A stretch of 64,000 nucleotides of DNA from Leclercia adecarboxylata. Its GTDB lineage: Bacteria > Pseudomonadota > Gammaproteobacteria > Enterobacterales > Enterobacteriaceae. Position 1 is the first letter of the stretch; each line of letters starts with the position of its first letter. Positions 2,709 through 46,032 of the stretch are shown here, in pieces. Below the pieces are notes generated by a model. It did not search any database and was not told where the DNA came from. It was given only the letters and a program-made list of their open reading frames with translations. The stretch covers positions 1 to 64,000 of the forward strand of contig NZ_CP040895.1 in NCBI RefSeq assembly GCF_006171285.1, given 5' to 3'. The translations under genes were made by a program, and so were the position numbers.

Positions 2709-2932
2709 CTACCTCTCACTAGTGAGGGGCGGCAGCGCATCAAGCGGTGAGCGCACTCCGGCACCGCCAACTTTCAGCACATGCGTGTAAATCATCGTCG
2801 TAGAGACGTCGGAATGGCCGAGCAGATCCTGCACGGTTCGAATGTCGTAACCGCTGCGGAGCAAGGCCGTCGCGAACGAGTGGCGGAGGGTGTGCGGTGT
2901 GGCGGGCTTCGTGATGCCTGCTTGTTCTACGG
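2709..2932 (-). pseudogene. intI1: 3' part of class 1 integrase gene, cut by IS26
   Basis: The minus strand encodes the C-terminal quarter of IntI1, from [18 protein letters not shown] through the tyrosine region [14 protein letters not shown] to [11 protein letters not shown]. It includes the HxxR box and the catalytic tyrosine. It stops at IS26, and the eight bases next to IS26 (2925-2932, TTCTACGG) recur at 45235-45242, where the rest of the same gene resumes. Joined across the duplication, the two parts rebuild one continuous integrase, so this is one half of a single gene split by insertion. It has no start and cannot be functional. Confidence 0.95.
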
Positions 2933-3752
2933 GGCACTGTTGCAAATAGTCGGTGGTGATAAACTTATCATCCCCTTTTGCTGATGGAGCTGCACATGAA
3001 CCCATTCAAAGGCCGGCATTTTCAGCGTGACATCATTCTGTGGGCCGTACGCTGGTACTGCAAATACGGCATCAGTTACCGTGAGCTGCAGGAGATGCTG
3101 GCTGAACGCGGAGTGAATGTCGATCACTCCACGATTTACCGCTGGGTTCAGCGTTATGCGCCTGAAATGGAAAAACGGCTGCGCTGGTACTGGCGTAACC
3201 CTTCCGATCTTTGCCCGTGGCACATGGATGAAACCTACGTGAAGGTCAATGGCCGCTGGGCGTATCTGTACCGGGCCGTCGACAGCCGGGGCCGCACTGT
3301 CGATTTTTATCTCTCCTCCCGTCGTAACAGCAAAGCTGCATACCGGTTTCTGGGTAAAATCCTCAACAACGTGAAGAAGTGGCAGATCCCGCGATTCATC
3401 AACACGGATAAAGCGCCCGCCTATGGTCGCGCGCTTGCTCTGCTCAAACGCGAAGGCCGGTGCCCGTCTGACGTTGAACACCGACAGATTAAGTACCGGA
3501 ACAACGTGATTGAATGCGATCATGGCAAACTGAAACGGATAATCGGCGCCACGCTGGGATTTAAATCCATGAAGACGGCTTACGCCACCATCAAAGGTAT
3601 TGAGGTGATGCGTGCACTACGCAAAGGCCAGGCCTCAGCATTTTATTATGGTGATCCCCTGGGCGAAATGCGCCTGGTAAGCAGAGTTTTTGAAATGTAA
3701 GGCCTTTGAATAAGACAAAAGGCTGCCTCATCGCTAACTTTGCAACAGTGCC
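2933..3752 (+). mobile_element. IS26: IS26 copy 1
   Basis: An exact 820-bp element with 14-bp ends GGCACTGTTGCAAA and TTTGCAACAGTGCC. Its left flank is the intI1 duplication TTCTACGG; its right flank GTATGCAA is not a repeat of it. The same element occurs at 24251, 30244 and 44415. Confidence 0.98.
2996..3700 (+). CDS. tnpA: IS26 transposase (copy 1)
   Basis: A 234-residue IS6-family transposase starting [13 protein letters not shown] longer in-frame start exists six codons upstream but is not the usual one. A helix-turn-helix region is followed by the DDE catalytic domain with [12 protein letters not shown] (first Asp), NTDKAPAY (second Asp) and the terminal Glu in [11 protein letters not shown]. 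It carries out the replicative and targeted conservative reactions that gather IS26-bounded segments. All four copies in the window appear identical in protein sequence. Confidence 0.97.
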
Positions 3753-3960
3753 GTATGCAATTAGCCAGGGGAAAAGCGCCCCTGTGGCGAAAGAATACGA
3801 GTACGGGATGAAGGTGGATGTTGTAAAGGTGATCAGTGTGGTGCGGCCTGCAAAAGTCTGCGCAGTGGTGCCCGCCGCAATGACCTATGAAGATTCAAAA
3901 GGGCAGCTAAATACAATTAGGTACACTGTGGCTGGAGAGTGTCGCCAACGAGGTGGCTAG
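3753..3960 (+). pseudogene. DUF2790-family protein, 5' end removed by IS26
   Basis: In-frame sequence directly after IS26 encodes EYEYGMKVDVVKVISV, then PAKVCAVVPAAMTYEDSKGQ and a short cysteine-containing end. This matches the DUF2790 family of small secreted proteins found almost only in Pseudomonas. The signal peptide and start are missing, replaced by IS26. Function of the family is unknown. Its presence marks Pseudomonas-type DNA next to IS26. Confidence 0.75.
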
Positions 3961-4052
3961 CAGCTATGCTGCTGTCAGAGGGATTCATAACGCTCAATTA
4001 ACCTCAACAGTTAGAGGGGTCGGGCGTTTTTTATATGCTCGTGTTTTAACCG

Positions 4053-44289: not shown

Positions 44290-44301
44290 CGTGCTTTATT
44301 T

Positions 44302-44414
44302 AATGAGATGGTCACTCCCTCCTTCCCGGTACTATGCTGAGGACAGGCTTTCATTCGGAGAACTATCATGGAAAACATTGCGCTCATTGGTATCGATCTG
44401 GGTAAAAACTCTTT
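44302..44414 (+). mobile_element. 113-bp end of a second IS5075-like element, cut by IS26
   Basis: The sequence is the reverse complement of the end at 38008-38120, including the first 15 codons of the transposase (MENIALIGIDLGKNS). It occupies the right terminal repeat of the transposon at the same point as the complete element in the left repeat, then stops at IS26 copy 4. Confidence 0.92.
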
Positions 44415-45234
44415 GGCACTGTTGCAAATAGTCGGTGGTGATAAACTTATCATCCCCTTTTGCTGATGGAGCTGCACATGAACCCATTCAAAGGCCGGCA
44501 TTTTCAGCGTGACATCATTCTGTGGGCCGTACGCTGGTACTGCAAATACGGCATCAGTTACCGTGAGCTGCAGGAGATGCTGGCTGAACGCGGAGTGAAT
44601 GTCGATCACTCCACGATTTACCGCTGGGTTCAGCGTTATGCGCCTGAAATGGAAAAACGGCTGCGCTGGTACTGGCGTAACCCTTCCGATCTTTGCCCGT
44701 GGCACATGGATGAAACCTACGTGAAGGTCAATGGCCGCTGGGCGTATCTGTACCGGGCCGTCGACAGCCGGGGCCGCACTGTCGATTTTTATCTCTCCTC
44801 CCGTCGTAACAGCAAAGCTGCATACCGGTTTCTGGGTAAAATCCTCAACAACGTGAAGAAGTGGCAGATCCCGCGATTCATCAACACGGATAAAGCGCCC
44901 GCCTATGGTCGCGCGCTTGCTCTGCTCAAACGCGAAGGCCGGTGCCCGTCTGACGTTGAACACCGACAGATTAAGTACCGGAACAACGTGATTGAATGCG
45001 ATCATGGCAAACTGAAACGGATAATCGGCGCCACGCTGGGATTTAAATCCATGAAGACGGCTTACGCCACCATCAAAGGTATTGAGGTGATGCGTGCACT
45101 ACGCAAAGGCCAGGCCTCAGCATTTTATTATGGTGATCCCCTGGGCGAAATGCGCCTGGTAAGCAGAGTTTTTGAAATGTAAGGCCTTTGAATAAGACAA
45201 AAGGCTGCCTCATCGCTAACTTTGCAACAGTGCC
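44415..45234 (+). mobile_element. IS26: IS26 copy 4
   Basis: An 820-bp IS26. Right flank 45235-45242 is TTCTACGG, the same 8 bp as the left flank of copy 1 (2925-2932). Left flank AACTCTTT belongs to the IS5075-like fragment. Copies 1 and 4 therefore bound one insertion in intI1. Confidence 0.98.
44478..45182 (+). CDS. tnpA: IS26 transposase (copy 4)
   Basis: The same intact 234-residue IS6-family DDE transposase as copy 1, plus strand. Confidence 0.97.
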   Translation: MNPFKGRHFQRDIILWAVRWYCKYGISYRELQEMLAERGVNVDHSTIYRWVQRYAPEMEKRLRWYWRNPSDLCPWHMDETYVKVNGRWAYLYRAVDSRGRTVDFYLSSRRNSKAAYRFLGKILNNVKKWQIPRFINTDKAPAYGRALALLKREGRCPSDVEHRQIKYRNNVIECDHGKLKRIIGATLGFKSMKTAYATIKGIEVMRALRKGQASAFYYGDPLGEMRLVSRVFEM

Positions 45235-46032
45235 TTCTACGGCACGTTTGAAGGCGCGCTGAAAGGTCTGGTCATACATGTGATGGCGACGCACGACACC
45301 GCTCCGTGGATCGGTCGAATGCGTGTGCTGCGCAAAAACCCAGAACCACGGCCAGGAATGCCCGGCGCGCGGATACTTCCGCTCAAGGGCGTCGGGAAGC
45401 GCAACGCCGCTGCGGCCCTCGGCCTGGTCCTTCAGCCACCATGCCCGTGCACGCGACAGCTGCTCGCGCAGGCTGGGTGCCAAGCTCTCGGGTAACATCA
45501 AGGCCCGATCCTTGGAGCCCTTGCCCTCCCGCACGATGATCGTGCCGTGATCGAAATCCAGATCCTTGACCCGCAGTTGCAAACCCTCACTGATCCGCAT
45601 GCCCGTTCCATACAGAAGCTGGGCGAACAAACGATGCTCGCCTTCCAGAAAACCGAGGATGCGAACCACTTCATCCGGGGTCAGCACCACCGGCAAGCGC
45701 CGCGACGGCCGAGGTCTTCCGATCTCCTGAAGCCAGGGCAGATCCGTGCACAGCACCTTGCCGTAGAAGAACAGCAAGGCCGCCAATGCCTGACGATGCG
45801 TGGAGACCGAAACCTTGCGCTCGTTCGCCAGCCAGGACAGAAATGCCTCGACTTCGCTGCTGCCCAAGGTTGCCGGGTGACGCACACCGTGGAAACGGAT
45901 GAAGGCACGAACCCAGTGGACATAAGCCTGTTCGGTTGGTAAGCTGTAATGCAAGTAGCGTATGCGCTCACGCAACTGGTCCAGAACCTTGACCGAACGC
46001 AGCGGTGGTAACGGCGCAGTGGCGGTTTTCAT
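45235..46032 (-). pseudogene. intI1: 5' part of class 1 integrase gene, cut by IS26
   Basis: Encodes IntI1 from MKTATAPLPPLRSVKVLDQL to HHMYDQTFQRAFKRAVE, about residues 1-266, with the catalytic Arg region (LYGTGMRISEGLQLRVKDLD). The last third, with HxxR and Tyr, is at 2709-2932. The integrase is P32/H39 at the two positions that co-vary with the Pc promoter type. No active integrase can be made, so the cassette array is frozen unless another IntI1 is present. Confidence 0.95.
45917..45945 (+). promoter_or_regulatory. Pc: Integron promoter PcW with TGN extended -10
   Basis: TGGACA (45917-45922), 17-bp spacer, TAAGCT (45940-45945): the weak Pc variant. The two bases TG just upstream of the -10 (TGGTAAGCT) give the extended -10 form known to raise PcW activity. 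It points to blaIMP. P2 is inactive: between TTGTTA and TACAGT (about 46036-46062) there are only 14 bases, without the GGG insertion. Confidence 0.9.

What the first reader, a model, noticed from the sequence alone, without database searches (positions are those of the whole stretch)
2925..45242. One intI1 gene split by 42 kb bounded by IS26, with the target duplication kept at the outer edges
TTCTACGG stands directly left of IS26 copy 1 (2925-2932) and directly right of IS26 copy 4 (45235-45242). The intI1 parts beyond it join into one continuous integrase. Simplest reading: one IS26 first inserted in intI1 of an IncN plasmid, then a second IS26-bearing molecule with an IncFII replicon was added by IS26 cointegration, giving a two-replicon fusion. 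The insert could also leave as one circle by recombination between copies 1 and 4, which would restore the small IncN plasmid with a single IS26 in intI1.
Basis: partly seen in the sequence, partly recalled or inferred. Interest (0 to 1): 0.85.

Follow-up and report, generated by a model that had tools for sequence, protein, structure and literature searches.

The report
IS26 fusion of two plasmid replicons
A carbapenem-resistance plasmid of a known type has been fused with a second, IncFII-type piece of DNA at a mobile element (IS26) that already sat in its integrase gene; this is a clear example of a well-known process rather than a new one.

Summary
Four identical IS26 copies lie in the interval; TTCTACGG flanks only the outermost two. 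In two intact IncN relatives the intI1 pieces overlap by exactly that octamer. The window is bases 1-64000 of a 94,635-bp contig. This fits the published integron In823b (PMC5027574, passages). So the IS26 in intI1 came first, and 41,482 bp carrying an IncFII repA was added there later, most likely by IS26-with-IS26 cointegration.

Corrections: the partner is not proven to be one molecule and was not found alone; copy 3 is also direct, so more than one circle could leave; the IncN parent has a second IS26 near qnrS1. Other plasmids carry the same split intI1 with other DNA inside. An IS26 cointegrate of such an IncN blaIMP-4 plasmid is already published (pB106-IMP, IncN-IncX3). New member of a known kind.

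The parts
2709..2932 (-). 3' piece of intI1, ending in the left copy of the 8-bp duplication
2925..2932 (+). left copy of target duplication TTCTACGG
2933..3752 (+). IS26 copy 1 (left boundary of the insert)
3753..24250 (.). insert segment A1: group II intron reverse transcriptases, OprD porin, UmuC fragment, parM region, SIR2-HerA pair, stretches resembling vapBC and copper-binding genes of relatives
24251..25070 (-). IS26 copy 2 (inverted, no matching flanks)
25071..30243 (.). insert segment A2 with the IncFII replicon
27977..28840 (-). IncFII repA
30244..31063 (+). IS26 copy 3 (direct); its two junctions had no match in the plasmid collection
31064..44414 (.). insert segment B: IS630 and IS5 transposases, porin, IS4321-type IS110, ISPa38-type tnpA and serine recombinase; ends inside an IS4321-type element
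44415..45234 (+). IS26 copy 4 (right boundary of the insert)
45235..45242 (+). right copy of target duplication TTCTACGG
45235..46032 (-). 5' piece of intI1
46185..46925 (+). blaIMP-4 cassette (44415-48426 is 100% identical to E41-1 p3, annotated IMP-4)
1..720 (+). IncN replication initiation gene

Best explanation
An IncN blaIMP-4 plasmid of the In823b type already had one IS26 in intI1, flanked by TTCTACGG. A second IS26-bearing DNA with an IncFII replicon was then fused at that IS26, in one step or two. The net gain is 41,482 bp (40,662 bp plus one IS26). The likely reaction is transposase-driven targeted conservative cointegration between two IS26 copies. Homologous recombination gives the same product and cannot be told apart by sequence. 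Shown: the occupied site in near-identical relatives, the direct IS26 at both edges, the retained duplication, the IncFII repA. Inferred: that a reaction between two IS26 copies did it, that the partner was circular, and the number of steps.
For: Both outer junctions with exactly 820 bp of identical IS26 between them in E41-1 p3 and pXH210_2. Outside the insert the contig is collinear with E41-1 p3: 4,012 bp at 100%, 12,893 bp at 99.98%, 2,864 bp at 100%, 29,238 bp at 99.97%; it differs in a 37-bp array and by a 1,221-bp IS3-type insertion. IncFII RepA above its cut-off. Inner flanks do not match each other, so no new duplication marks the fusion. PMC7885326 (passages): the targeted reaction makes no duplication and is about 1,000 times more frequent than copy-in.
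Against: The partner was not found alone. No record among the 5000 kept covered 80% of 3753-24250, 25071-44414 or 25071-30243. The left inner junction covered 80% of its query in 0 of the 5000 kept. The right inner junction query gave 12 records at 80% or more: 11 as two separate pieces and one as a single piece at 98.6%; that one, IncY plasmid pEh15_3, has the same neighbouring genes, but its IS26 is not identical to the copies here. Copy 3 junctions: no match. The exact 14-bp IS26 end occurs in this genome only on this contig, so an IS26 on the partner before the fusion is not independently documented.
Confidence: 0.7

Rival explanations
1. Two or more IS26 units were added one after another at the same IS26: an IncFII part (3753-30243) and a 13.4-kb unit (31064-44414), separated by direct copy 3. 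This is a variant of the best explanation and its odds overlap with it.
For: Copies 1, 3 and 4 are direct. No plasmid record matched either junction of copy 3. The last 3,260 bp of the second unit are 100% identical to a stretch of contig C1 of the same genome.
Against: It needs more steps. The junctions may simply be unsampled. C1 continues uninterrupted past the point of window 44414, without IS26.
Confidence: 0.3
2. The IncN plasmid's own IS26 attacked an IS26-free IncFII plasmid by copy-in. The duplication at the inner edges was later lost by an IS26-adjacent deletion.
For: Exact IS26 ends occur only on this contig of the genome. Inner edges cut sequence that runs on in other plasmids. The outer TTCTACGG would be kept.
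Against: The inner flanks GTATGCAA and AACTCTTT do not match, so an extra deletion is needed. Copy-in is about 1,000 times rarer than the targeted reaction (PMC7885326, passages).
Confidence: 0.15
3. One-step copy-in of an IS26-bearing IncFII plasmid into an intact intI1, which made TTCTACGG on the spot.
For: It would give the same boundaries and duplication.
Against: The same insertion with the same duplication is already in near-identical IncN plasmids without the insert, and in other replicons. Those would all have to descend from resolved cointegrates or be independent hits on the same base.
Confidence: 0.05
4. Assembly artefact: two separate plasmids (about 53.2 kb IncN and 41.5 kb IncFII) joined through the 820-bp repeat.
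For: Identical 820-bp repeats are a known source of misjoining (general knowledge); no reads were available here.
Against: The contig starts at the IncN rep gene and its two ends are adjacent in E41-1 p3, consistent with one closed circle. Each replication gene occurs once in the 8-contig genome.
Confidence: 0.07

Closest known systems
In823b of pP378-IMP and related IncN1 plasmids (PMC5027574, passages seen)
   Same: Described as blaIMP-4 followed by Kl.pn.I3, mobC and IS6100, with intI1 disrupted by IS26, on an IncN1 backbone with an IS26-qnrS1 region
   Different: Here there are two IS26 copies with 40.7 kb between them where that has one; the exact IS26 position in pP378-IMP was not compared (sequence not fetched)
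E41-1 p3 (NZ_CP028486) and pXH210_2 (NZ_CP052763)
   Same: Collinear IncN backbone, identical integron start, identical single IS26 and TTCTACGG in intI1
   Different: No insert; no IS3-type element at 48427-49647; 41.4 and 39.4 copies of the 37-bp repeat against 16.4
pB106-IMP (CP067096), IncN-IncX3 cointegrate with blaIMP-4 (PMC10525660, passages seen)
   Same: An IncN blaIMP-4 plasmid fused with a second replicon through IS26; the intI1 IS26 with TTCTACGG on both sides is present
   Different: There the intI1 insertion is still one 820-bp IS26 (1 mismatch); another IS26 lies next to the point matching window 2287. The partner is IncX3
pIMP-HK1500 (PMC11285197, passages seen; record not in the collection)
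   Same: Described as having intI1 interrupted by IS26 and Kl.pn.I3 disturbed by ISSen4, the combination that seems present here
   Different: Sequence not available here, so position and duplication were not compared
IS26 targeted conservative cointegrates (PMC7885326, passages seen)
   Same: Two molecules separated by direct IS26 copies, without a new duplication
   Different: Natural product; transposase dependence not tested

Membership tests
IS26-with-IS26 (targeted conservative) cointegrate | One partner already carried IS26 at the fusion point | tested here: met
   one IS26 in intI1 of E41-1 p3 and pXH210_2
IS26-with-IS26 (targeted conservative) cointegrate | Directly oriented IS26 at both boundaries | tested here: met
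   copies 1 and 4 identical and direct
IS26-with-IS26 (targeted conservative) cointegrate | No new target duplication at the fusion | tested here: met
   inner flanks do not match; the outer duplication is present in relatives without the insert. A lost duplication cannot be excluded
IS26-with-IS26 (targeted conservative) cointegrate | The other partner carried IS26 at the matching point | tested here: inconclusive
   partner not found alone
IS26-with-IS26 (targeted conservative) cointegrate | Transposase-dependent and RecA-independent | not testable with these tools
   product is the same as that of homologous recombination
In823b integron | intI1 interrupted by IS26, blaIMP-4 cassette, group II intron, mobC, IS6100 in this order | tested here: met
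   order shared with E41-1 p3, whose annotation lists these genes; the name In823b is from PMC5027574
In823b integron | 25-bp inverted repeats and 5-bp direct repeats at the integron ends | not tested
   described in PMC5027574; ends not examined here
IncN plasmid | IncN rep and transfer backbone | tested here: met
   collinear with records typed IncN by PLSDB
IncFII replicon | IncFII-family RepA | tested here: met
   TIGR03474, 555.4 bits, cut-off 446.9
IncFII replicon | CopA-type antisense RNA and repBA pseudoknot | tested here: inconclusive
   hits upstream of repA but below the gathering scores (47.2 against 60; 33.3 against 45)

The most novel reading that the evidence does not exclude
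The IS26 in intI1 with TTCTACGG is a standing docking port: one old insertion, spread across plasmid families with class 1 integrons, at which unrelated IS26-bearing DNA, up to whole replicons, is added again and again. Of 12 records visible in both junction lists, 4 hold about one IS26 there (three read as identical to the copies here, one known only by its 821-bp distance). Seven hold 4.5 to 125.6 kb between the intI1 parts, and one has the parts inverted. Of the seven headers opened among the 12, two are typed IncN (one of them named IncN3), three IncC, one IncP and one rep_cluster_652. In two of the IncC records (67.9 and 125.6 kb) the interval is most of the plasmid, so they may be rearrangements rather than additions.
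Probability: 0.45. Interest if true: 0.5.

Novelty: new member of a known kind. Interest (0 to 1): 0.3.

Why it matters
It gives a clean before-and-after pair for IS26 fusion: the parental state with one IS26 is in the databases, so the order of events can be read without guessing. The fusion puts an IncN carbapenemase plasmid of a type predicted to be conjugative and an IncFII replicon with a SIR2-HerA gene pair on one molecule. This could change maintenance and compatibility; those effects are inferred, not measured.

Tried and rejected
Scanning 392 family genomes for the two outer junctions gave only the own genome (1 of 392 each), so species representatives do not help. A scan of genome contigs for the left inner junction found nothing. 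A scan for the right outer junction found 4 loci; the left junction was in 0 of the 4 stretches held, but in two of them the stretch begins at or inside the IS26. Among IncN records read, two have only one of the two outer junctions: p205880-8 (NZ_CP030310) the left, pIMP-FJ1503 (NZ_KU051710) the right. I looked for direct or inverted 8-bp flank pairs that would explain copies 2 and 3; none match exactly. One-step copy-in was considered and set aside because the occupied site exists without the insert. Plasmid searches with long insert pieces stopped at 5000 records, so their counts are lower bounds. The C7 stretch fetched was not analysed. I did not identify the host species.

Full report
What is there. 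The window is bases 1-64000 of contig C8 (94,635 bp) of an 8-contig genome. C8 carries five IS26 copies, identical over 820 bp: 2933-3752, 30244-31063, 44415-45234 and 68930-69749 direct, 24251-25070 inverted. The exact 14-bp IS26 end has 11 matches in the whole genome, all on C8; one, at 71681, has no partner and the sequence after it is not IS26.

The duplication. Ten 8-bp flanks give 45 pairs; only the left flank of copy 1 and the right flank of copy 4 match exactly, as TTCTACGG; two pairs differ at 2 positions. The octamer by itself occurs 5 times in the window, so the evidence is its place. Two IncN plasmids with an intact, 1014-bp intI1 (pKPC-349c and pKp1050-4) hold the left query at 100% (533 of 533 bases) and the right query at 99.8% (937 of 946); the pieces share exactly one TTCTACGG there.

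The parent. In E41-1 p3 (E. coli, Shanghai, IncN, blaIMP-4, 52,864 bp) and pXH210_2 (K. pneumoniae, IncN, blaIMP-4, 52,578 bp) exactly 820 bp, identical to copy 1, lie between the two TTCTACGG copies. Outside the insert C8 is collinear with E41-1 p3. Blocks: 44415-48426 100%; 49648-62540 99.98%; 62540-65403 100%; 65404-94635 99.97%. The start of the contig up to copy 1 aligns at about 99%, across a 37-bp tandem array with 16.4 copies here, 41.4 in E41-1 p3 and 39.4 in pXH210_2. C8 also has a 1,221-bp IS3-type element with GTTG on both sides (48427-49647). The parents carry a second IS26 with the same flanks as C8:68930-69749. The first and last bases of C8 are adjacent in E41-1 p3, consistent with a closed circle.

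In print. In823b is described as an integron whose intI1 is disrupted by IS26, in IncN1 plasmid pP378-IMP (PMC5027574, passages); that sequence was not compared. PMC11285197 (passages) lists further plasmids with intI1 interrupted by IS26, and says that In823 and In823b differ by whether intI1 is whole; it describes Kl.pn.I3 of pIMP-HK1500 as disturbed by ISSen4. The extra element here matched an ISSen4-annotated stretch at 91.6% over 455 bp, that stretch being cut. TTCTACGG is cited as an IS26 duplication in PMC6206278 (passages). pB106-IMP is a published IncN-IncX3 cointegrate of the same blaIMP-4 plasmid type (PMC10525660, passages); in it the intI1 insertion is still one 820-bp IS26. Seven paper searches (open-licence PMC) showed, among the titles and abstract beginnings listed, no IncN-IncFII blaIMP-4 fusion at intI1; the lists were cut, and subscription papers and supplements were not searched.

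The insert. Between copies 1 and 4 lie 40,662 bp. A1 (3753-24250) matches pieces of Enterobacter kobei pIB2020_IncFIB (99.98% over 5,683 bp from 3753) and of a Lelliottia amnigena plasmid (99.9% over 4,665 bp). A2 (25071-30243) holds the IncFII repA and matches Enterobacter plasmids over up to 49%. B (31064-44414) holds IS630, IS5 and IS110 transposases and an ISPa38-type tnpA; it ends inside an IS4321-type element that continues without IS26 in contig C1 of the same genome. The long searches kept no record covering 80% of 3753-24250, 25071-44414 or 25071-30243. The sequence before 3753 and before 25071 also runs on without IS26 in relatives. The right inner junction has one near match, in IncY plasmid pEh15_3, at 98.6% and with a non-identical IS26. 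IncFII repA and IncN rep each occur once in the genome, so no resolved plasmid is in the assembly.

Mechanism. The occupied intI1 site exists without the insert, so the insert most likely came second. The inner flanks (GTATGCAA and AACTCTTT) do not match, so the fusion left no visible duplication of its own. This fits cointegration between two IS26 copies, reported as about 1,000 times more frequent than copy-in and as making no duplication; the same source says that homologous recombination gives an identical product, and that a single IS26 with a duplication arises by resolution of a copy-in cointegrate (PMC7885326, passages). By that account the first IS26 in intI1 would itself be the remnant of an older cointegrate. 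What stays open is whether the partner was one molecule. Copy 3 is direct and splits the insert, and its two junctions had no match in 72,556 plasmid records. A copy-in from the IncN side into an IS26-free plasmid, with a later deletion, is not excluded.

The site elsewhere. The right junction (44 bp) is in 566 plasmid records and the left in 181. I could see 60 rows of each. Twelve records are in both lists: four with about one IS26 (820, 820, 820 and 821 bp), seven with 4,473 to 125,609 bp in between, one with the parts inverted. Five further records were read directly: pXH210_2 and pB106-IMP with 820 bp, IncP plasmid NZ_CP083711 with 4,473 bp, and two with only one of the junctions (NZ_CP030310 left, NZ_KU051710 right). 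The largest two intervals are in IncC plasmids and take in most of the record, so they may be internal rearrangements. This suggests, but does not show, one old insertion reused as a docking point.

Verdict. Observation confirmed; interpretation supported, with the qualifications above. The structure is an ordinary though unusually well-documented IS26 fusion; interest 0.3.

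Noticed in passing
window 768-1386: 37-bp tandem array next to the IncN rep gene has 16.4 copies here, 41.4 in E41-1 p3 and 39.4 in pXH210_2. A shorter array in a two-replicon plasmid may bear on copy-number control (inference).
   Followed up: partly
window 48427-49647: IS3-type element of 1,221 bp with GTTG on both sides, beside the group II intron reverse transcriptase gene; ISSen4-like (91.6% over 455 bp). PMC11285197 describes ISSen4 in Kl.pn.I3 of pIMP-HK1500.
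   Followed up: partly
window 16795-19646: HerA (602 aa) and SIR2 (348 aa) genes side by side, strong PADLOC matches (730.6 and 537.7 bits): a candidate anti-phage pair on the insert.
   Followed up: partly
window 29637-29723: C4 antisense RNA match above its gathering score (59.8 against 45), with a weaker isrK match beside it, upstream of the IncFII repA.
   Followed up: no
window 10638-11968: An IS3-type element (ISEc36 in a relative) lies between the Plasmid_stab_B gene and parM, near the end of parM in the Lelliottia relative; a UmuC C-terminal fragment lies at 9545-10219.
   Followed up: partly
window 41155-44414: 3,260 bp 100% identical to contig C1 (327,617 bp) of the same genome; contig C7 (75,205 bp) also has stretches similar to parts of the insert.
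   Followed up: partly
contig C8 71681-71694 (outside the window): A lone exact copy of the 14-bp IS26 end without a partner end; the sequence after it is not IS26.
   Followed up: no
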